From Flavobacterium daejeonense DSM 17708 (lineage in GTDB: Bacteria > Bacteroidota > Bacteroidia > Flavobacteriales > Flavobacteriaceae), in NCBI RefSeq assembly GCF_000425425.1, contig NZ_AUDK01000013.1, positions 1 through 64,000 on the forward strand: 64,000 nt of DNA, read 5' to 3'. A program made the translations under genes and the position numbers. Positions 4,384 to 46,449 of the stretch are shown in pieces; position 1 is the first letter of the stretch; the number at the start of each line of letters is the position of its first letter. The notes under the pieces are model-generated. The model saw only the letters and a list, made by a program, of their open reading frames with translations, did no database searches and was not told the origin of the DNA.

Positions 4384-6573
4384 ATGTCTACAATACGTTT
4401 TCAGGCGTTAAGAGAAGCCTCCGGCAGAAAAGCCATTCATTTTGAAGAAAGTCATAGAAAATCCAACATTTTTGGTTCGAATGTGTTTAATGAAAAAGCG
4501 ATGAAGCACTATTTGACTTCGGATGCTTTTAAAGCGGTTCAGGGAGCTATTGAAAGTGGTGCCAAGATTGATCGAAAATTAGCCGATTATATTGCCATGG
4601 GTATGAAAGAATGGGCTTTATCTAAAGGAGTGACTCATTATACACACTGGTTTCAGCCTTTAACAGGAACTACGGCTGAGAAGCATGATGCCTTCTTTGA
4701 AACTTCTTTTGACGGAAGTGATCCGGTAGAAAAGTTTGGTGGGGCACAATTAGTGCAACAGGAACCGGATGCTTCCAGTTTTCCCAATGGAGGTATTCGA
4801 AATACTTTTGAAGCCCGCGGATATACTGCCTGGGATCCTACTTCTCCGGCCTTTATTTATGGAACCACATTGTGTATTCCTACTGTTTTTATTTCGTACA
4901 CCGGTGAAGCTCTGGATAACAAAATTCCTTTGTTAAGAGCATTGGCAGCTATGGATGAGGCAGCTACGGAAGTTTGTCGTTATTTTGACAAAAATGTAAA
5001 AAAGGTTACGGCAACTTTAGGTTGGGAACAGGAATATTTTTTGGTTGATAAAGCTTTGGCACATTCCCGTCCTGATTTGATGATGACGGGAAGAACTTTA
5101 TTAGGACATACTTCGGCTAAAGGACAACAATTAGACGATCATTATTTTGGTTCAATTCCTACTCGCGCCTTGACCTATATGCGCGATTTGGAACAGGAAT
5201 GTATGCTGCTTGGAATTCCGGTAAAAACCCGTCATAACGAGGTAGCGCCAAACCAATTTGAGTTGGCTCCTATTTTTGAAGAGACTAATTTAGCGGTGGA
5301 TCACAACTGTTTGTTGATGGATATTATGCAAAAAGTAGCTGAACGTCATGAGTTTAAAGTGCTTTTGCATGAAAAACCATTTAAAGGAGTAAATGGTTCC
5401 GGAAAACATAATAACTGGTCGCTGGCAACGGACACAGGAGTGAATTTATTGAGTCCGAGCAAAACGCCAATGAGTAACTTGCAATTCCTGACTTTTTTTA
5501 TTAATACCATCAAAGCGGTAAATGATTATGAAGAATTGTTGCGTGCTTCGATTGCTACAGCAAGTAACGACCACCGTTTAGGAGCTAATGAGGCTCCTCC
5601 TGCAATTATTTCGGTATTTATTGGGGAACAATTAACCAAAGTTTTAGCTGAATTAGAAAGTGTGACCAGAGGGAAATTATCTCCGGAGGAAAAAACTGAT
5701 TTAAAGCTAAATGTAGTTGGGAAAATTCCGGAAGTAATTTTGGATAATACCGACAGAAACCGAACGTCTCCTTTTGCTTTTACCGGAAATAAATTTGAGT
5801 TCAGAGCAGTGGGTTCTTCTGCAAACTGTTCGAATGCAATGACTACTTTGAATACTATTGTAGCCAAACAATTAAGAGATTTTAAAGCGGAGGTAGATGC
5901 TTTGATTGAATCCAAAGCCATGAAAAAAGACGATGCTATTTTTAATGTTTTGAGAGAATATATTAAAGTATCGAAAAATATTCTTTTTGAAGGTGACGGT
6001 TATAGCGAAGCCTGGGAAAAAGAAGCGAAGAAAAGAGGGTTGAGTAACTTTAAAACAACTCCGGAGGCTTTGAAAGCCAGAGCTTCTAAACGTGCCTTGG
6101 ATTTGTTTTCCGAATTAGGAATTATGAATCACATCGAAATGGAAGCGCGTTACGAGATTGAATTGGAAGAATACACGAAAAAAATCCAAATTGAAAGTAG
6201 AGTTTTAGGTGATATTTCTAAAAACCATGTGATTCCAACGGCTATTCGTTATCAAAATACTTTAATCGAAAATGTAAAAGGTTTGAAGGATATTTTCGGG
6301 AAAGAATTCGAATCTATTGCTAAAGAACAAATCGGTTTGATTAAAGAAATTTCGGTTCATATTGAAGGAATTAATGCCAAGGTGGAAGAGATGACTAATG
6401 AAAGAAAGAAAGCTAATGCGCTGAACAATGCTCAAAAAACTGCTGAAGCTTATTGTAACAAAGTGAAGCCTTATTTTGAAATCATCAGAAATCATTGTGA
6501 CAAATTAGAATTATTAGTAGATAATGAGTTGTGGACTTTGACTAAATACAGGGAGTTATTGTTTACGAAATAA
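4384..6573 (+). CDS. glnN: Glutamine synthetase, type III (GSIII)
   Basis: A 729-residue glutamine synthetase of the long type III class that is typical of Bacteroidota and some cyanobacteria. The N-terminal GSIII region includes HYTHWFQPLTGTTAEKHDAF. The catalytic core carries GWEQEYFLVD (about residue 213), KTRHNEVAPNQFELAP, the NGSGKHNNWSL motif and NDHRLGANEAPPAI. A charged helical C-terminal extension of about 130 residues follows. Length matches the family. It performs the same reaction as the type II enzyme next door. The two genes are divergent with separate TAnnTTTG boxes, which fits differential expression under nitrogen limitation, although that is inferred. No internal damage is seen. 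Confidence 0.95.
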   Translation: MSTIRFQALREASGRKAIHFEESHRKSNIFGSNVFNEKAMKHYLTSDAFKAVQGAIESGAKIDRKLADYIAMGMKEWALSKGVTHYTHWFQPLTGTTAEKHDAFFETSFDGSDPVEKFGGAQLVQQEPDASSFPNGGIRNTFEARGYTAWDPTSPAFIYGTTLCIPTVFISYTGEALDNKIPLLRALAAMDEAATEVCRYFDKNVKKVTATLGWEQEYFLVDKALAHSRPDLMMTGRTLLGHTSAKGQQLDDHYFGSIPTRALTYMRDLEQECMLLGIPVKTRHNEVAPNQFELAPIFEETNLAVDHNCLLMDIMQKVAERHEFKVLLHEKPFKGVNGSGKHNNWSLATDTGVNLLSPSKTPMSNLQFLTFFINTIKAVNDYEELLRASIATASNDHRLGANEAPPAIISVFIGEQLTKVLAELESVTRGKLSPEEKTDLKLNVVGKIPEVILDNTDRNRTSPFAFTGNKFEFRAVGSSANCSNAMTTLNTIVAKQLRDFKAEVDALIESKAMKKDDAIFNVLREYIKVSKNILFEGDGYSEAWEKEAKKRGLSNFKTTPEALKARASKRALDLFSELGIMNHIEMEARYEIELEEYTKKIQIESRVLGDISKNHVIPTAIRYQNTLIENVKGLKDIFGKEFESIAKEQIGLIKEISVHIEGINAKVEEMTNERKKANALNNAQKTAEAYCNKVKPYFEIIRNHCDKLELLVDNELWTLTKYRELLFTK

Positions 6574-6592
6574 TATAGTAGTTACAGGTTTT

Positions 6593-6648
6593 GAGTTAGA
6601 GGTTAGGGGCGAGGGCTTCTAACCTCTAACTTTTAACCTCTAACTTCT
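6593..6648. repeat. Heptamer-periodic palindrome after glnN
   Basis: Eight consecutive 7-base units can be cut here: GAGTTAG, AGGTTAG, GGGCGAG, GGCTTCT, AACCTCT, AACTTTT, AACCTCT, AACTTCT. The first two units pair with the fifth and start of the sixth to form a perfect 12-bp stem (GTTAGAGGTTAG, 6595-6606, with 6619-6630). It is 20 bases downstream of the glnN stop and could serve as its terminator. Confidence 0.6.
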
Positions 6649-6658
6649 AAAAAATAAT

Positions 6659-6666
6659 TATCTTTG
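6659..6666 (+). promoter_or_regulatory. -7 promoter box of purM
   Basis: TATCTTTG followed by CGCC lies 42 bases before the purM ATG and matches TAnnTTTG exactly. The heptamer repeat occupies the place where a -33 box would be, and none is clear. Confidence 0.6.
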
Positions 6667-6707
6667 CGCCAAAATCAAGTTGCCCGGCAACTACACAAAT
6701 AGAATTC

Positions 6708-7886
6708 ATGAGTTCAGATACTTCAAAAAGATACGCACAGCGTGGTGTTTCGGCATCTAAAGAAGATGTACACAATGCAATAAAAAATATTGATAAAGGA
6801 TTGTTTCCTAAAGCATTTTGCAAAATTGTTCCGGATTATTTAACCCAGGACGATGATTATTGTTTGATTATGCACGCGGACGGAGCGGGAACCAAATCCT
6901 CATTGGCTTACATGTATTGGAAAGAAACCGGAGATTTATCCGTTTGGAAAGGTATTGCTCAGGACGCTTTAATCATGAATATTGACGATTTACTATGTGT
7001 AGGAGCAACCGATAATATTTTGCTTTCTTCTACTATTGGAAGAAATAAAAATTTAATTCCTGCTGAAGTAATTTCGGCGATTATCAACGGAACGGAAGAA
7101 TTAATCCAAGAGTTGGCTTCTTTCGGAGTAAGTATTCATTCAACCGGAGGAGAAACGGCTGATGTGGGTGATATCGTTCGTACCATTATTGTGGATTCGA
7201 CAGTGACTGCCCGAATGAAACGTTCTAAAGTAATTGATAATGTTAATATTCAGGCGGGTGATGTAATCGTTGGATTAGAATCTTTCGGTCAGGCTTCTTA
7301 TGAAAAAAGCTATAACGGAGGAATGGGAAGTAACGGATTGACATCGGCTCGTCATGATGTTTTTGGGAAGTATTTGGCAACAAAATATCCAGAGAGTTAT
7401 GATGCAGCTGTTCCGGAAGAATTAATTTATTCCGGTCAGGTACAATTGACGGATGCTGTTGCAAATTCACCAATTGACGCCGGACAATTAGTGCTTTCGC
7501 CAACGCGTACTTATGCGCCAATTATCAAACAAGTTTTAGATAAATATTCGGCAAATGAAATTCACGGTATGGTTCACTGTAGTGGTGGAGCCCAAACTAA
7601 GATTTTACATTTTGTAGATAATTTACATATTATAAAAGATAATTTATTTCCTGTTCCGCCATTGTTTCAATTGATTCAGGAGCAATCAAAAACCGATTGG
7701 AAAGAAATGTATCAGGTTTTCAACTGCGGTCACCGTATGGAATTGTATGTTCCTGCTGCAATTGCAGAAGATATTATTGCGATTTCAAAATCGTTCAATG
7801 TTAATGCGCAAATTGTAGGTAGAGTAGAAGCTTCTGAAAGTAAAAAGTTAACTATCAGTAGCGAATACGGAACTTTTGAATATTAA
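6708..7886 (+). CDS. purM: AIR synthase (phosphoribosylformylglycinamidine cyclo-ligase)
   Basis: A 392-residue cytosolic enzyme that closes the imidazole ring of AIR from FGAM with ATP in purine synthesis. Family marks visible are RYAQRGVSASKEDVHNAI at the N-terminus, MHADGAGTKSSLAYMY (glycine-rich nucleotide region), DALIMNIDDLLCVGA, STGGETADVGDIVRT and the C-terminal HCSGGAQTK. It is longer than the enterobacterial enzyme (about 345), as usual for the Bacteroidota form. It has its own TATCTTTG promoter box. A small conserved gene follows 73 bases later, across an octamer-periodic palindrome. No other purine gene adjoins it. Confidence 0.92.
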   Translation: MSSDTSKRYAQRGVSASKEDVHNAIKNIDKGLFPKAFCKIVPDYLTQDDDYCLIMHADGAGTKSSLAYMYWKETGDLSVWKGIAQDALIMNIDDLLCVGATDNILLSSTIGRNKNLIPAEVISAIINGTEELIQELASFGVSIHSTGGETADVGDIVRTIIVDSTVTARMKRSKVIDNVNIQAGDVIVGLESFGQASYEKSYNGGMGSNGLTSARHDVFGKYLATKYPESYDAAVPEELIYSGQVQLTDAVANSPIDAGQLVLSPTRTYAPIIKQVLDKYSANEIHGMVHCSGGAQTKILHFVDNLHIIKDNLFPVPPLFQLIQEQSKTDWKEMYQVFNCGHRMELYVPAAIAEDIIAISKSFNVNAQIVGRVEASESKKLTISSEYGTFEY

Positions 7887-7894
7887 TTATTAAA

Positions 7895-7951
7895 GAGTTA
7901 CTAAGTTGCTGAGTTTCTAAGTATCTCAGAAACTTAGCTACTCAGCAACTC
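7895..7951. repeat. Octamer-periodic palindrome between purM and the 121-residue gene
   Basis: Seven 8-base units fill the gap: GAGTTACT, AAGTTGCT, GAGTTTCT, AAGTATCT, CAGAAACT, TAGCTACT, CAGCAACT, plus a final C. Each ends in CT and the outer ones form 24-base arms (7895-7918 with 7928-7951) that match at 20 of 24 positions. The element can fold as a long hairpin but has only A residues on its downstream side, so strong termination on the plus strand is uncertain. Confidence 0.6.
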
Positions 7952-7959
7952 AAAAAAAC

Positions 7960-8325
7960 ATGTACGAATTAGTTTTTTGGAAATATTTAGAAGAGGTTTA
8001 TTTAAACCATCAGCTTGTTTACGAAGCTATAGACGAGCAGGAAACTATTGAAGGTTTAGAAGTTTTACCTGTAGAAGTAATTTTGAATCGCATTGCTTCG
8101 GTATTTTCAAAATGGGAACGGGTAGATGAAAACAGTTGGAAAAATAAGGACGGTGTTGGTGCTTTTCAGGTAAAAACTACGCCTCAAATTGTACAGATTG
8201 ATTGTTACGGAACTCAGGGGAAAACTATGGATAAATTAGTAGATATTATGGAAGAATTCAAATGTCCGCTTTTTGATCCTCAGATTCCTGCCCGATATGA
8301 CGAAATGTACGAGGAAGAAGAGTAA
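7960..8325 (+). CDS. Conserved small acidic protein downstream of purM
   Basis: A 121-residue acidic protein without signal peptide or membrane segment, so probably cytosolic. It begins MYELVFWKYLEEVYLN and ends in an acidic EEEE tail after PARYDEMY. The middle holds VFSKWERVDENSWKNKDG and a short beta-rich part around QIVQIDCYG. I do not recognise a functional family; proteins of this kind recur as hypothetical proteins in flavobacteria. It follows purM in the same direction but a palindrome lies between them. A perfect terminator follows 8 bases after the stop. Function unknown. Confidence 0.8.
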   Translation: MYELVFWKYLEEVYLNHQLVYEAIDEQETIEGLEVLPVEVILNRIASVFSKWERVDENSWKNKDGVGAFQVKTTPQIVQIDCYGTQGKTMDKLVDIMEEFKCPLFDPQIPARYDEMYEEEE

Positions 8326-8326
8326 A

Positions 8327-8369
8327 AAAATACAAAAGCGTTAAGATAAAACTTAACGCTTTTTTTATG
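8327..8369. repeat. 43-base direct repeat, left copy, containing a terminator
   Basis: Identical at all 43 positions to 10227-10269, exactly 1900 bases downstream. Inside it, AAAAGCGTTAAG (8334-8345) and CTTAACGCTTTT (8352-8363) form a perfect 12-bp stem with the loop ATAAAA, flanked by A and T runs, so it is a bidirectional terminator. The copies bracket the two-gene accessory segment. Confidence 0.9.
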
Positions 8370-8518
8370 GATTCATGTTTGTTTAAAATTTTTATGTATT
8401 AGTAGGCTAATGGACTTTAGATTTTCTTTAAAGATATTTTTGTAAAAAAAATAATATTTTTTATTTATTAAATAAAAAAAAACTTACCTTTATAAGGTTA
8501 GCTTAAAAATGCATAATT

Positions 8519-8582
8519 ATGAAATCTATTTTTTACTTACGTTTATTTTTGATTAATGTTTTAATTTTAACTGTTTTTTTTG
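8519..8582 (+). other. Signal-peptide coding stretch, out of frame with the 344-residue gene
   Basis: An ATG at 8519 opens a 23-codon frame that reads like a signal peptide (MKSIFYLRLF, then LINVLILTVFF) and ends at a TGA just after the downstream gene's frame begins. The two frames are joined by a run of eight T (8574-8581). With seven T the frame would continue as TVFLNCENNN, giving a full lipoprotein signal with Cys at the cleavage site. The frameshift may be phase variation, a damaged gene or a base-calling error. Confidence 0.65.
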
Positions 8583-9614
8583 AATTGTGAAAATAATAAT
8601 GTCAATTTATCTAACAATGAAAATGGTTTACAAGAAAATTTCTCGTATCAAAAAGAGAAAACAGAGATTAGTAAACACCAATTTACTGATTATCGAGATG
8701 CTTTAAATGGTATTATTGAAGATAAAGATGGCTTTTTTCGAATGAATAATTTAAAATTATTATCCTTCAATTTAGTGAAAGATAAAAAAAGAATAATTCC
8801 TGAATTTGATAAATCAAAAACTGTAAGAGTACAACGTAATTCTGTGGATAATCTAGATTTGATAAATAATTTTGGCATAAAATCTTTTGATAATTCAGAT
8901 GAATCTAATTCGGATTATATTAGAAAGAAGAAAGAATATATTTCTAAATTAATAGAGGAAGAAATTAATTTGCAGGTTGTAGACTTAAAATGGGATTTGG
9001 ATGGTGAAATAATTTTCACACAAGCTTATTTCAAAAAAAATGAATTTTTATATGATGATATTATATCAAATTATGTTATTTTAAATTCTCCAACAATTAC
9101 AACTAAAAATAAAAAAGCAGGTTCTTTATTTAGTAAAATTGAAGCTGAAGCAACAGTAGAAGATGATTACGGATATTATGATTGTCCAACTAGTGGTCGA
9201 AAAGCTATTTCATATTATAAAGTTCTACCTTATATCTTGACATCTTATTTTGGAGGGAATGTAGCGGAGGCAAGAGCAGAAATAACGGTCACTGGTTCGA
9301 GTTTTTTAGAAAATGGTAATTGTAAAAAAGTTATTGAATCACGTAGTTTTAATGGTTATACCTATCAAAGTGCGAGCGGTATAGCTGATGCAGAAGTTCA
9401 AGTAACTAATTTTAGGGCGTATACACCATATCAGCAATATGATGGGTATTGTGAATTTGTTATGGCTATTGTTTTGCAATATAAAAGTATTTGGGATAAT
9501 GTAACAATTTCGTTATCATTTTCGAGTGCTAGTTTTACTGTTTCAGGAGGGACTGGAGGAACAAAGGTTTTTGAACAATATAGCGGTTATGTTATTCCTT
9601 CTATGTTAAATTAA
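8580..9614 (+). CDS. Secreted or lipid-anchored protein of accessory segment (5' frameshift)
   Basis: A 344-residue frame whose only in-frame start is a TTG at 8580 directly at NCENNN, which is unlikely to be the real start; the signal peptide lies one frame away upstream. The N-terminal half is charged and Asn/Lys-rich and carries LKLLSF (58-63), DLKWDLDGE (135-143) and FLYDDIISNYVIL (156-168), all of which recur in the next gene product. The C-terminal half is Ser/Thr/Gly/Tyr-rich, contains two or three Cys (YDCPTSGR, NGNCKK, DGYCEF) and looks like beta-sandwich. No sorting domain is seen. It lies between the two 43-base repeats and is very AT-rich. Function unknown. Confidence 0.7.
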   Translation: MNCENNNVNLSNNENGLQENFSYQKEKTEISKHQFTDYRDALNGIIEDKDGFFRMNNLKLLSFNLVKDKKRIIPEFDKSKTVRVQRNSVDNLDLINNFGIKSFDNSDESNSDYIRKKKEYISKLIEEEINLQVVDLKWDLDGEIIFTQAYFKKNEFLYDDIISNYVILNSPTITTKNKKAGSLFSKIEAEATVEDDYGYYDCPTSGRKAISYYKVLPYILTSYFGGNVAEARAEITVTGSSFLENGNCKKVIESRSFNGYTYQSASGIADAEVQVTNFRAYTPYQQYDGYCEFVMAIVLQYKSIWDNVTISLSFSSASFTVSGGTGGTKVFEQYSGYVIPSMLN

Positions 9615-9625
9615 AAAAGACTATT

Positions 9626-10204
9626 GTGAAAAAATATTTGTGCATTCTGTTTTTTATTATTTTGTTTCCAAACTGTTTTTCTCAAAGTAATTATAATACA
9701 GTTATGGTTACTGATTCAACGGAATATACTTGGAAACCTAAATTAGATAGGTTACTTTTTGATCCTCCGAGTTATTTTATAGCTAGTGATTTAAAATTAT
9801 TGAGTTATAAATTGCTTTCAAATGAAGAGATGAAAGTGGATGAGTTTCTTAGAATGTCTATTGATAGTACTCAGTTGTTTCCTGAATTACGCTATAGCAA
9901 AAAAGCATTAGAGGAAATGAGAAGTGAAAATTTTGATGTTGAAACATATTTGCACATGGTTTCTTTTTCGAGTATTTCACTTAAACGTCAATATGCTATA
10001 ATTGGTCATAAAGTTGATATTGTTTCTGAATTAATGCATAAAAATAAAAAAGCTTCTTTGATCAAATTACAATGGAAATATATGGATCAAGAATTTTTTA
10101 CGTATTGTGTTGTTTCTGGAACTCAATTTGTTTATGATTATATTCTTTCTTATGTATTTGTTGCACAACTTAGTTCTAAGACTGAAATAACTATAGAAGA
10201 ATAA
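9626..10204 (+). CDS. Secreted protein of accessory segment, partial paralogue of its neighbour
   Basis: A 192-residue protein starting at a GTG 11 bases after the preceding stop, so the pair is likely co-transcribed. The signal peptide MKKYLCILFFIILF ends either in a lipobox-like FPNC (Cys17) or at FSQ-SN (about residue 20). The mature part carries LKLLSY (56-61), KLQWKYMDQE (147-156) and FVYDYILSYVFV (168-179), which line up with three stretches of the 344-residue protein, so both share one uncharacterised domain. It lacks the Tyr/Gly-rich C-terminal half. The right copy of the 43-base terminator repeat follows. Function unknown; envelope location inferred. Confidence 0.75.
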   Translation: MKKYLCILFFIILFPNCFSQSNYNTVMVTDSTEYTWKPKLDRLLFDPPSYFIASDLKLLSYKLLSNEEMKVDEFLRMSIDSTQLFPELRYSKKALEEMRSENFDVETYLHMVSFSSISLKRQYAIIGHKVDIVSELMHKNKKASLIKLQWKYMDQEFFTYCVVSGTQFVYDYILSYVFVAQLSSKTEITIEE

Positions 10205-10226
10205 AAATTTTGAAATAAAAAAGTAT

Positions 10227-10269
10227 AAAATACAAAAGCGTTAAGATAAAACTTAACGCTTTTTTTATG
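10227..10269. repeat. 43-base direct repeat, right copy, containing a terminator
   Basis: Perfect copy of 8327-8369. It lies between the 192-residue gene and the converging PAS gene and can end transcription of both, since its 12-bp stem has A and T runs on its two sides. Confidence 0.9.
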
Positions 10270-10271
10270 AT

Positions 10272-11753
10272 TTATTCTAAAGGTTTTTTCTTGTCTTTGT
10301 CTTCTTCTTTTTCGTCTTTTTTATCATTTTTGAAGCCAATGAGTTTGCGGTATTTGTTTTCGGTTTCTTCGAGTTCTTCTTCCATTTTTTTGTATTGGCT
10401 AATGTCTTTGATGGTTACTACGGCAGCTACAATATTGTTGTCCTGATCTACTAAAGGTCGTCCACTGATTAAGACTCTTCTCTTTTCGCGGGAATCCGGA
10501 TCCCAAAGTACGACATCAACATCGTCGGTTATTTCGCCATTAAAAGCGCGTTCCATCGGCAGGTTTTGTGCCGGAAAAACCGTTTTTTCGTCCGGGAAAT
10601 AGAGTTCGAAATGAGCGGTTAAATCCGTTGAAATTTTATCGTCTTCTTCGATTCCAAAAATGTCGTTAGCCATATAATTGGCCAGAATTACTTTTTTATC
10701 AGCATTGGCAACAATAACCCCTTCGCCAATATTCTCGACAATGACACGCAATTTTTCTTCGTTTTCATACAATTCGTCAACGGCTTTTTGTTGTTCAATT
10801 CCCATTTCAACCGTTTCGGTAATATCTCGTGCCGCCGAATAAATAATACCGTCTTTCAGGTCGATATTGCTGTTCCAGTCCAGCCATCGGTAGGAACCGT
10901 CTTTGTGGCGTACTCTGTTTTTAAAGCTAATCACGGTTTTACCTTTTCGAATTTCAGCCAATACTTCATCGGAAGTAGCGCGATCCTCGGGGTGAGTTAA
11001 ATCCATGAATTTTATTTCGTCCAGATCTTGTTGGGTGTAGCCTAAAGTATTGGTAAAAGCCGCGTTGATTTTGATAAAATGGTCGTTTTTGGCAACCGTA
11101 AAAATATCAAAAGACATGTTAAAAAAGGCATCGGTAGCTCTGAGAGAATCTTCTAGTTTTTTTCTTTCGGTAATATCGGTCGAGATACCGCCAATAGCAT
11201 AAATTCTGCCTGTTGCATCATATAAAGGAAATTTAACCGCGATATAAGTATGTATTCCGTCTTTTTGTTCGATGGTTTCTTCCGATTTTAATTCGGTGAG
11301 TTTTTTGGCTACTTCTAAATCTGAATTACGATACATTTCGGCAATTTCTTTGGGTAAAAAATCATAATCGGTTTTTCCGATAATGCGTTCGTTAGTTGTG
11401 CCAAAAAGTTCTCCGAAATTTTTATTTATTAAAAGGTATTCGCCATTTAGTTTTTTGATAAAAACGGGATTAGAAGTATTGTCAAGAATAGATTGCAGTA
11501 GTTTTTTATTTTCTTCCAAAAGATTCTGGGCTTTTTCTTTGGCTTTGAGTTGGCTTCGAATGATGAAATAAACCACAATGAGGAGTAGGATAGAAAGGGT
11601 AAATAAAAAGATTTCTAAGGCATCGAGTTTGACATCCATCATGGTGTCACGAGTTGTATTGATGCGGATTAAAAAAATCCATGCAGCAGCAATTACCACT
11701 ATTATATTGATGATAAAACCCAGAAAAATTTTTTTTTGGAAAGAGATTGTCAT
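10272..11753 (-). CDS. Membrane-anchored triple-PAS sensor without output domain
   Basis: A 493-residue protein with two N-terminal membrane helices (about 10-28 and 48-66), then three PAS modules: about 85-198 (LLQSILDNTSNPVFIKK to STDITERKK), 205-315 (FFNMSFDIFTVAK to AARDITE, with the PAC motif RHKDGSYRWLDW) and 330-455 (LRVIVENIGEGVIVANAD to VVTIKDISQYKK). A coiled, highly charged tail rich in Lys/Asp/Glu ends the protein. PAS proteins of this build normally end in a histidine kinase, but no H-box, N-box or ATP-binding motif follows, and no response regulator adjoins. It may sense through partners, or have lost its kinase. Sensing is inferred; ligand unknown. Confidence 0.85.
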   Translation of the reverse strand: MTISFQKKIFLGFIINIIVVIAAAWIFLIRINTTRDTMMDVKLDALEIFLFTLSILLLIVVYFIIRSQLKAKEKAQNLLEENKKLLQSILDNTSNPVFIKKLNGEYLLINKNFGELFGTTNERIIGKTDYDFLPKEIAEMYRNSDLEVAKKLTELKSEETIEQKDGIHTYIAVKFPLYDATGRIYAIGGISTDITERKKLEDSLRATDAFFNMSFDIFTVAKNDHFIKINAAFTNTLGYTQQDLDEIKFMDLTHPEDRATSDEVLAEIRKGKTVISFKNRVRHKDGSYRWLDWNSNIDLKDGIIYSAARDITETVEMGIEQQKAVDELYENEEKLRVIVENIGEGVIVANADKKVILANYMANDIFGIEEDDKISTDLTAHFELYFPDEKTVFPAQNLPMERAFNGEITDDVDVVLWDPDSREKRRVLISGRPLVDQDNNIVAAVVTIKDISQYKKMEEELEETENKYRKLIGFKNDKKDEKEEDKDKKKPLE

Positions 11754-11876
11754 GGTTTTTTGGTTTTGGTTGAAAATCTTAAAATAGCCTGATAGCCAAT
11801 TTGCTATAAGGAAAGTTACTAAATAATATGCGGATTATTCATTTTATGAGTTGTTTTGTTCGGTTGAAATAACAAT

Positions 11877-13772
11877 TTAAGATTTTGTTTTTTCAAATCG
11901 CATCAGGTTTAAACTGAAAAGAATTACAATTAAAGTAACGCCCACATCGGCGGCGATTGCCAAAACTAAGTTGCTGTAACCAAACACAGCCAATAAAATA
12001 AAAACCAATTTTGTAATGATCGCTCCAAAAGTGTTGGCTTTAATCTGTTTCATGGTTTTTTTACTCAACCGGATAAGGAACGGAATTAAGGAAAGTTGGT
12101 CGTTCATTAAGGCAATATTAGCTGTTTCAATAGCGGTGTCGCTTCCGGCAGCGCCCATGGCAATTCCTACGGTGCTTAATGCTAAAGCCGGAGCATCATT
12201 GATGCCGTCTCCCACCATGGCTACTTTATCGTATTGTTGTAAAAGTGCTTTTATTTCTTCCGATTTTTGTTCTGGAAGTAAGTTGCCAAAAACTTTGGTA
12301 ATTCCCACCTGACGCGCTACAAAATGAGCGGCTTTTTCGGTATCTCCGGTAAGCATAATCACTGAGATATTTTCTTCCTGTATTTCCTGAATGGCCTGGC
12401 GGCTATCGGGTTTTATTTCATCGGTTAAGCCAATGATACCAGCTACTCCCTGCCCAAAACTTACCACTACACTGGTTTTTCCTTCGGTGGATAATTGTGC
12501 AACAATGGCTTCTACTTCTTCTGAAATATCATGATATTCGCGGATAAATTCCAGTTTTCCTACCAGAACGGTGTCTATTTGACAAACCACACATTTGGCA
12601 GTAGCTCCTTTACCCAAAATACTTTTAAAATCCTGAGCAATATGAGGTTCAAAACCTTCTTGCTTACTGGCAGTGATGATGGCTTGTGCTAAAGGATGTT
12701 CGGAGAACATTTCGGCTCCGGCTGTACAGGAAAGCAATTCTTCCCGGCTGGTTCCTATAAGCGGAAAAACATCTGAAACAACCGGAGTTCCATAAGTAAT
12801 CGTTCGGGTTTTATCAACCGCAATGGCCTGAATCTCGGCTAAGGCTTCAATGTATTTTCCGCCTTTTACCAACGCTCCTTTGGAGGAAGCGTTCCCAATA
12901 GCAGCATAAATGGCAACCGGAGTAGAAATCACTAAAGCGCAGGGGCAGGCAATAACCAAAAGGGTGACAGCCTGTTTTAACCAATGATTAAAATCCAATC
13001 CCAAAATAAAAACCGGAATTGTGAAAATTAAAATGGCTATTCCTATAATAATGGGAGTGTAGAGTTTAGAAAATCGCTGAATGAATTTTTGAGTTTCACT
13101 TTTGGCAGCTCCTGCTTCAAAAGTCATTTGGATGATTTTGGCAAAAGTAGTATCGGTAGAAAGTTTAGTGGTTTCAATTTCGATGTAGCCATTGGTGATT
13201 AGCGTTCCCGCAAAAACGCTGTCGCCTGTTTGTTTTTCCTTCGCAACGGGTTCTCCTGTAATAGCCGATTGGTCAATGAGGCATTCGCCAAAAGTTATTT
13301 TGCCATCCAAAGGAATAATCGCTCCGTTTTTTACCTTAATAATGGTGCCAATTTCAATTTGGTCAATTGGAATTTCTTTATTTTGTTCTTTGACAAAAGC
13401 AGTTTTGGGAGTACTCTGAATTAATTCGTCTAAAGCCGATTTAGAGTTTTCGAGTCCAATGTCTTCCAGGCGTTCTCCTAAAACATAGAGTACAATTACC
13501 ACCGCAGCTTCGGGATATTCGCCCAAATACAAAGCGGCAATTACCGCGATAGTCATCAATAAATTAATACTGCTGAAATTGAATTTAATCAGGGATTGAA
13601 AGCCGTTTAAAATAACATTATGACCAATTAAAATAATGAAACTGCAAAAAATAAAAGGCGCATAAGGCATTGGTAAATGGATTCCTAAAAGCGAAAGAAT
13701 TTCTAAAACAATGACAACAATTACGGATAGGAGTAAGAAGACAAACTTTTTATCTTGGAAAGGTAGATTCAT
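11877..13772 (-). CDS. Heavy-metal P1B-type ATPase (ZntA/CadA-like)
   Basis: A 631-residue inner-membrane pump that would export Zn2+, Cd2+ or similar ions using ATP. Visible are the actuator loop AITGEPVAKEK, the ion-binding CPC motif in LLVIACPCALVISTP, the HP motif SEHPLAQAI, VIMLTGDTE, and the hinge MVGDGINDAPALA. The C-terminal membrane Asp (AADVGVTL) fits the Zn/Cd group. No N-terminal metal-binding domain is present; the protein starts straight with membrane helices. The phosphorylation site reads VDKTRTIT with Arg at the place of the near-invariant Gly of DKTGT (Asp320; Arg codon at 12804-12806), which is unusual. The adjoining upstream region has a 10-bp inverted repeat that could be an operator. 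Metal specificity is inferred. Confidence 0.92.
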   Translation of the reverse strand: MNLPFQDKKFVFLLLSVIVVIVLEILSLLGIHLPMPYAPFIFCSFIILIGHNVILNGFQSLIKFNFSSINLLMTIAVIAALYLGEYPEAAVVIVLYVLGERLEDIGLENSKSALDELIQSTPKTAFVKEQNKEIPIDQIEIGTIIKVKNGAIIPLDGKITFGECLIDQSAITGEPVAKEKQTGDSVFAGTLITNGYIEIETTKLSTDTTFAKIIQMTFEAGAAKSETQKFIQRFSKLYTPIIIGIAILIFTIPVFILGLDFNHWLKQAVTLLVIACPCALVISTPVAIYAAIGNASSKGALVKGGKYIEALAEIQAIAVDKTRTITYGTPVVSDVFPLIGTSREELLSCTAGAEMFSEHPLAQAIITASKQEGFEPHIAQDFKSILGKGATAKCVVCQIDTVLVGKLEFIREYHDISEEVEAIVAQLSTEGKTSVVVSFGQGVAGIIGLTDEIKPDSRQAIQEIQEENISVIMLTGDTEKAAHFVARQVGITKVFGNLLPEQKSEEIKALLQQYDKVAMVGDGINDAPALALSTVGIAMGAAGSDTAIETANIALMNDQLSLIPFLIRLSKKTMKQIKANTFGAIITKLVFILLAVFGYSNLVLAIAADVGVTLIVILFSLNLMRFEKTKS

Positions 13773-45991: not shown

Positions 45992-46098
45992 AAATATGGT
46001 GTTTGTGCCCTAAAGATAGTAATTCTTAAGCGTGAAAATGTCCTGCACTGTCTTTAAAGTTTTGTTAATACCTTTTTTTTTGCCTCCTAAAAAGGGAG

Positions 46099-46449
46099 TT
46101 ATTTTCTTAAAATTTTTTCCATTGATTTTCCTTTCGCTAATTCGTCAATGAGTTTGTCCAGATAGCGAATTTGCTGCATGAGTTTGTCTTCGATTTCTTC
46201 CACACGGTAACCGCAAATGACTCCTGTAATTTTGGAAACATTAGGGTTGATTTGAGGTGCTTTTGCAAAGAAAGTTTCAAAATCAGTTTTGTGGTCAAGA
46301 ATTTGTAGTAAATTCTGTTCGTTATATCCGGTGAGCCAAAAAATAATTTCATCTACTTCCTCTTTGCTGCGTCCTTTTTTTTCGGCTTTAGCAATATAAT
46401 GCGGATAAACGGAGGCAAAAGCCATTTTGTAAACTTTGGTATTATTCAT
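46099..46449 (-). CDS. DUF2200 family protein
   Basis: A 116-residue cytosolic protein with the DUF2200 marks [35 protein letters not shown] and [38 protein letters not shown]. It is helical and basic. It follows the OsmC gene in the same direction with a 22-base gap, so they are likely co-transcribed. Function unknown. Confidence 0.88.

What the first reader, a model, noticed from the sequence alone, without database searches (positions are those of the whole stretch)
8327..10269. Two-gene AT-rich segment bracketed by a perfect 43-base direct repeat carrying a terminator
8327-8369 and 10227-10269 are identical, exactly 1900 bases apart, and each contains the same 12-bp terminator stem. The left copy ends the small purM-linked gene, the right copy ends the converging PAS gene. 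Without the segment the two genes would converge on one shared bidirectional terminator. The simplest reading is that the two exported-protein genes were inserted at, or duplicated together with, that terminator, giving a way for later exact loss by recombination between the copies. Terminators as integration or recombination sites for small cargo are seldom described in flavobacteria. The sequence match is direct; the insertion history is inference.
Basis: partly seen in the sequence, partly recalled or inferred. Interest (0 to 1): 0.6.

Follow-up and report, generated by a model that had tools for sequence, protein, structure and literature searches.

The report
Gene pair inserted at duplicated terminator
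A Flavobacterium genome carries two foreign-looking genes at a transcription stop signal; the stop signal was copied in the process, so the genes now sit between two identical copies, which is a known but uncommon kind of insertion.

Summary
Identical 43-base copies lie 1900 bases apart, each with a 12-bp terminator hairpin; a 24-base core is found nowhere else in the genome at up to 3 mismatches. In the 7 of 65 genome-contig loci where the 121-residue gene converges directly on the PAS gene, F. pokkalii included, one terminator copy and no cargo are present. Cargo gene 1 has no credible relative in 397 other genus genomes sampled, nor in 10 near relatives searched whole. Each of the 7 has a different loop, while the two copies here are identical, so the duplication looks recent. 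[quoted passage not shown] The cargo has no recombinase; the entry mechanism is unproven. At a second locus F. pokkalii appears to have lost a gene exactly between two terminators, leaving one hybrid terminator. Terminators are not a general integration site here: 1 of 23 indels between the two genomes has a long end duplication. Cargo gene 1 is out of frame with its lipoprotein-like signal at a run of eight T. Interest is modest.

The parts
7960..8325 (+). 121-residue gene (no family found), left neighbour; its stop is followed by terminator copy 1
   Evidence: no Pfam or NCBIfam match up to E 0.1
8327..8369 (+). terminator copy 1 of the 43-base direct repeat (12-bp stem, 6-nt loop)
   Evidence: flagged by the simple scan on the - strand only
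8370..10226 (+). inserted segment, 26.0% G+C, two-gene cargo; no recombinase or transposase family found in it
8519..9614 (+). cargo gene 1: lipoprotein-like; signal peptide from ATG 8519 is out of frame with the 344-codon open frame from TTG 8580, at a run of eight T (8574-8581)
   Evidence: a relative in another genus begins with an in-frame lipoprotein-like signal
9626..10204 (+). cargo gene 2: 192 residues, signal-like N terminus (by eye); weakly similar to part of gene 1
10227..10269 (+). terminator copy 2; its right flank is the native PAS-side sequence, and alignment to F. pokkalii starts at 10218
   Evidence: flagged on both strands
10272..11753 (-). converging PAS-domain protein gene, right neighbour

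Best explanation
A foreign-looking, AT-rich, two-gene segment (8370-10226) entered the window's lineage after it split from F. pokkalii. It went into the single intrinsic terminator shared by the 121-residue gene and the converging PAS gene, and 43 bases of that target (up to about 55 against F. pokkalii) were duplicated on entry. The result is a gene pair between two identical terminators, so upstream gene, cargo and PAS gene each still end at a terminator hairpin. Shown: single-copy empty sites in relatives, presence only here among the genomes searched, perfect identity of the copies, and no recombinase family found in the cargo. Inferred: how it entered. I think a replication-associated or illegitimate event most likely (a stalled end at the hairpin copies a foreign fragment and returns to re-copy the terminator), because no recombinase, no other copy of the site and no matching insertion was found in the stretches compared. 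Also inferred: the repeat now lets the pair be deleted exactly by slippage or recombination, as appears to have happened at another terminator-bracketed gene in the same species pair.
For: Of 65 genome-contig loci with the 121-residue gene, 0 contain either cargo gene. In the 7 where a close PAS gene converges next door (PAS match 50-103 bases from the stop) there is one hairpin with the same 11-bp stem and a loop of 7-9 nt, against 6 nt in the window. F. pokkalii is empty, and the window's two flanks map to an overlap of 55 pokkalii bases. Cargo gene 1: 2 of 398 genus genomes hit, itself and one match at E 9.9e-4 inside a frame that looks like a methyltransferase (by recall) and is judged chance. 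It also has 0 hits in 10 near relatives searched whole, with the query known to ring in G000 and, in the family search, in G749. Gene 2: 1 of 199, itself. Cargo G+C is 26.0% against 35.6%. No Pfam, NCBIfam or PADLOC family reached its cut-off. Exact-loss precedent: G000 and F. pokkalii at the xerD-OMP locus. Engineered circuits in E. coli lose segments between homologous terminators (PMC2991278, passages).
Against: One genome per species is held, so the event cannot be dated inside the species, and a donor with both copies cannot be excluded. The genus searches sampled part of the genus and use a first-look filter. The entry mechanism has no direct trace. Repeated exact losses seem to occur at the second locus, which weakens 'absent elsewhere means gained'. 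Gene conversion could keep the two copies identical, so identity alone does not prove youth. Not every neighbour pair uses this hairpin: in G092 a PAS gene (58% identical) lies next to the 121-residue gene without it.
Confidence: 0.68

Rival explanations
1. The cargo is ancestral to the group and was lost exactly, by recombination between the two terminators, in every relative.
For: Exact loss between terminators seems to have happened at the xerD-OMP locus: of 8 scorable genomes, 3 keep the gene and 5 have one terminator.
Against: There the gene persists in several species at the same divergence as its flanks. Here no other genus genome examined has a credible cargo relative. Two copies as old as the group should differ in the loop, since the 7 adjacent relatives all differ there from the window, yet they are identical.
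Confidence: 0.1
2. The terminator hairpin is a true recombination site (two 12-bp arms, 6-bp spacer) used in trans by one of the genome's tyrosine recombinases, with the cargo as a cassette.
For: The arm and spacer geometry resembles a tyrosine recombinase core site (recalled). The genome has 12 Phage_integrase matches. The duplicated block looks like attL/attR.
Against: The spacer length varies between relatives: 6 nt here, 7 to 9 in the 7 empty sites. No other copy of the site exists in the genome. Only 1 of 23 indels is of this type. No recombinase family was found in the cargo.
Confidence: 0.08
3. The whole block, 121-residue gene plus terminator plus cargo, came from an unsampled related strain by homologous recombination in the flanks, as in minimal mobile elements; the duplication arose in the donor.
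For: The 121-residue gene differs from F. pokkalii by 36 of 360 aligned bases (10.0%), against 2.9% in the PAS gene and 4.7% in purM.
Against: 17% of 923 comparable bins are about as divergent (9.5% or more), so the peak is not special. Both copies share a loop not seen in the relatives read.
Confidence: 0.12
4. Assembly artefact: a foreign fragment was wrongly joined at a 43-base repeat.
For: The genome is a 49-contig draft.
Against: 43 bases is shorter than a usual read (recalled), the copies sit inside a 127-kb contig, and two independent wrong joins would be needed.
Confidence: 0.03

Closest known systems
Insertion with long target duplication (described for restriction-modification genes in Helicobacter pylori; Nobusato et al. 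2000, seen only as a cited reference)
   Same: Gene insertion found by comparing related genomes, with a long duplication of the target (PMC1643837, PMC3031569, PMC4978471: passages).
   Different: The cargo is two exported-type proteins, not restriction-modification genes, and the duplicated target is an intrinsic terminator.
Minimal mobile elements of Neisseria
   Same: Small non-core genes between fixed core genes (PMC2784325, passages).
   Different: Those passages describe insertion by homologous recombination, with different cargo in different strains. Here only one cargo is seen, and a long repeat flanks it.
Deletion between homologous terminators in engineered E. coli circuits
   Same: Segments between homologous terminators are repeatedly deleted (PMC2991278, passages).
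   Different: Those are engineered circuits; here the pair arose naturally, and loss is inferred only at a second locus.

Membership tests
Insertion with long target duplication | Extra genes relative to a closely related genome at the same place | tested here: met
   F. pokkalii and 6 more relatives lack them at the site
Insertion with long target duplication | Long direct repeat at the ends, single in the empty genome | tested here: met
   43 exact bases here; one hairpin in each of 7 empty sites; 55-base overlap in alignment to F. pokkalii
Insertion with long target duplication | No transposase or integrase in the inserted segment (feature by recall) | tested here: met
   Two cargo genes; no Pfam or NCBIfam family above its cut-off
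Insertion with long target duplication | Cargo is often a restriction-modification system | tested here: not met
   No PADLOC match and no Pfam or NCBIfam family above cut-off. Described as frequent, not defining (passage in PMC1643837)
Integrase-driven island or cassette | Recombinase in the element, or recurrent use of the same site | tested here: not met
   No recombinase family in the cargo; site unique in the genome; 1 of 23 indels
Minimal mobile element | Different cargo at the same place in different strains | tested here: inconclusive
   7 of 7 adjacent sites empty; no other strains of the species seen

The most novel reading that the evidence does not exclude
Terminator hairpins between converging flavobacterial genes can act as recombination sites that both take up and exactly release small gene modules, so that terminators set the borders of gene gain and loss.
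Probability: 0.08. Interest if true: 0.7.

Novelty: new member of a known kind. Interest (0 to 1): 0.36.

Why it matters
It is a clean natural example, with the empty site in hand, of a small gene module added next to a terminator while the terminator is copied. Together with the apparent exact loss of another terminator-bracketed gene in the sister species, it suggests that repeated terminators help decide which small genes come and go, a process I found described for engineered circuits. The pair of sister species makes excision rates testable.

Tried and rejected
Terminators as a general insertion site: rejected on the data seen. In 2.15 Mb of five genomes (864 kb of G000, 89 kb of F. pokkalii, 400 kb each of G051, G180 and G036), identical repeats of 20 bases or more with a stem of 8 or more gave four pairs. 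They are the window pair; G051:C1 397363/397974 (followed up); G051 243600/245589 (looks like a dispersed repeat, not tested); and G000:C2 2660/8323, next to other long repeats at the same spacing. One search used spacings to 8 kb, to 10 kb, and one search left out repeats of 150 bases or more. Many pairs with stems of 6 or 7 in G051 look like coding tandem repeats and were set aside. In 723 kb around the 121-residue gene in 65 relatives (24-base words) three pairs with 6-bp stems appeared and were not followed up.

Recombinational import of the left flank: the 10% divergence peak looked telling but 17% of bins are about as divergent, so it is not used as evidence.

Other PAS neighbours: in 8 further loci a PAS protein 45-56% identical lies 622-3926 bases from the 121-residue gene. 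Their terminators were not examined.

Origin of the cargo: nothing in plasmids (gene 1, gene 2), in phages (gene 1 only), in viral contigs (close relatives only), in genome contigs (gene 2 only, close relatives only) or in solved structures (weak ribosomal matches only). Family level: 3 of 397 genomes hit for gene 1, that is itself, G749 (E 6.6e-17) and G564 (E 2.8e-4). Sub-cut-off Pfam matches (Peptidase_M99 for gene 1, DUF3447 for gene 2; E 0.03-0.05) were not believed. Structure models of both proteins, made without an alignment, were too poor to use (mean pLDDT 34.8 and 31.1), so no fold search was run. No Rfam match at gathering score in 6000-13000; no tandem repeats in 7000-12000.

Literature: searches listed no paper that I recognised as describing terminators as insertion targets in flavobacteria. 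The one listed (PMC12595487, passages) concerns islands at tmRNA. The library is open-access only, so this is weak.

Full report
What is there. The window lies in a 127-kb contig of a 4.24-Mb, 49-contig genome (G000); its relatives are Flavobacterium. The best genome contigs match to its 121-residue protein is F. pokkalii, 97% identical, and 95.2% and 97.2% identical in DNA on the left and right. The 43-base word occurs at 8327-8369 and 10227-10269, and its 24-base core nowhere else in the genome at up to 3 mismatches. It folds into a 12-bp stem with a 6-nt loop on either strand. The simple scan calls the right copy terminator-like on both strands and the left copy on the - strand only.

Empty sites. 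In 65 genome-contig loci holding the 121-residue gene, neither cargo gene was found in any (0 of 65). In 7 of the 65 a close PAS gene converges directly next door: F. pokkalii, F. glycines, the MAG 32-34-25, F. flevense, the MAG UBA6721, F. undicola and F. sufflavum. Each of the 7 has one hairpin with the stem AAAGCGTTAAG/CTTAACGCTTT and a loop of 7 to 9 nt that differs from the window's ATAAAA. F. seoulense has a related hairpin but no PAS gene within 6 kb; F. palustre shows neither. From the genus search, G051 and G180 are also empty (G180 with the same loop as UBA6721), and G031 and G005 match two of the seven letter for letter where compared. Against a general rule: in G092 a more distant PAS gene (58%) lies beside the 121-residue gene without this hairpin. 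Aligned to F. pokkalii, the window's left flank runs to 8369 and its right flank starts at 10218. The two map to an overlap of 55 pokkalii bases.

Direction and age. Cargo gene 1 hits 2 of 398 genus genomes: itself, and one match at E 9.9e-4 judged chance. It hits 0 of 10 near relatives searched whole, F. pokkalii included. Gene 2 hits 1 of 199, itself. The segment has 26.0% G+C, lower than any of 311 windows of its size. The loop differs even between the window and F. pokkalii, yet both copies here are identical. This argues that the duplication followed that split, unless gene conversion keeps the copies alike.

What the cargo is. Gene 1 and gene 2 are weakly similar (24% over 115 residues), and both match the same gene in two other genera of the family. 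In G749 that gene begins with a lipoprotein-like signal, is itself interrupted by a stop, and lies beside a transposase-like gene (both names by recall). In the window, gene 1's signal peptide (from 8519) and its long open frame (from 8580) are in different frames at a run of eight T. Gene 1 is therefore off as sequenced: by phase variation, by decay or by a sequencing error. No family reached its cut-off for either protein, and the structure models are too poor to use.

Exact loss at another locus. A survey for genes bracketed by identical terminators found one in G051: an outer-membrane-protein-like gene of 172 residues between an xerD-like gene and a second such gene (names by recall). I scored it in G051 and in the 9 genomes. 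In 8 of these 10 both neighbours are in place. Of the 8, 3 hold the gene (G051, F. glycines and the window's own genome). The other 5 have the same neighbours with one terminator (F. pokkalii, F. seoulense, F. flevense, F. undicola, F. sufflavum). G180 and UBA6721 were not scorable, F. palustre was not held, and of the relatives only G005, which agrees with F. flevense, was read. In the two other holders the gene's DNA identity to G051 (80%) is like its neighbours' (78-81%), so it looks old and lost rather than gained. The single terminator of F. pokkalii has the left flank and loop of the window genome's left copy and the right flank of its right copy, with the switch inside AGAGGTTTCA. The second neighbour is about 97% identical there and the xerD side mostly 93-97%, with one divergent 250-base bin, so the flanks look like orthologues. 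This is best read as exact loss through terminator copies in the same species pair, and it shows what the duplicated terminator in the window allows.

How special it is. In about 344 kb aligned between the window genome and F. pokkalii (blocks of at least 300 bases and over 80% identity) there are 23 indels with a net size of at least 150 bp. Only the window's has a long end duplication; the next longest shared end word is 13 bases, and random position pairs reach 12. So terminators are not a routine integration site here. The left neighbour's higher divergence (10.0% against 2.9% in the PAS gene) is not unusual for this genome pair (17% of 923 bins at 9.5% or more), so I do not use it.

Mechanism. 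No recombinase family was found in the cargo. The genome has 12 Phage_integrase matches elsewhere. The hairpin's 12-6-12 layout resembles a recombinase core site (recalled), but the spacer length is not conserved and the site is unique. I therefore favour a one-off insertion with target duplication, perhaps by copying during repair at the hairpin (inference). Homologous import from an unsampled strain is the main alternative.

Known context. The pattern matches insertion with long target duplication, described from Helicobacter comparisons (PMC1643837, PMC3031569, PMC4978471: passages read). Deletion between homologous terminators, independent of recA for repeats under 200 bp, is stated for engineered circuits (PMC2991278, passages). 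I file the window as a new member of the first kind with an unusual target.

Noticed in passing
window 8519-8585: Signal peptide and long open frame of cargo gene 1 are separated by a run of eight T (8574-8581); possible phase variation, decay or sequencing error.
   Followed up: partly
G000:C24:56258-58300 (L231), G199:C14 (L236), G051:C1:396432-398500: Outer-membrane-like gene between two similar terminators, kept in 3 and exactly absent in 5 of 8 scorable Flavobacterium genomes.
   Followed up: yes
window 7887-7959: Hairpin-rich intergenic sequence between purM and the 121-residue gene that matches F. glycines but not the closer F. pokkalii.
   Followed up: no
G000:C1:117336-132705: 15.3-kb segment absent from F. 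pokkalii; one end carries a hairpin like a tRNA T arm, perhaps an island at a tRNA gene.
   Followed up: no
window 46070-46099: F. pokkalii has 4.1 kb extra here; no long end repeat.
   Followed up: no
L272 (G749): Relative of cargo gene 1, interrupted by a stop codon, beside a transposase-like gene.
   Followed up: partly
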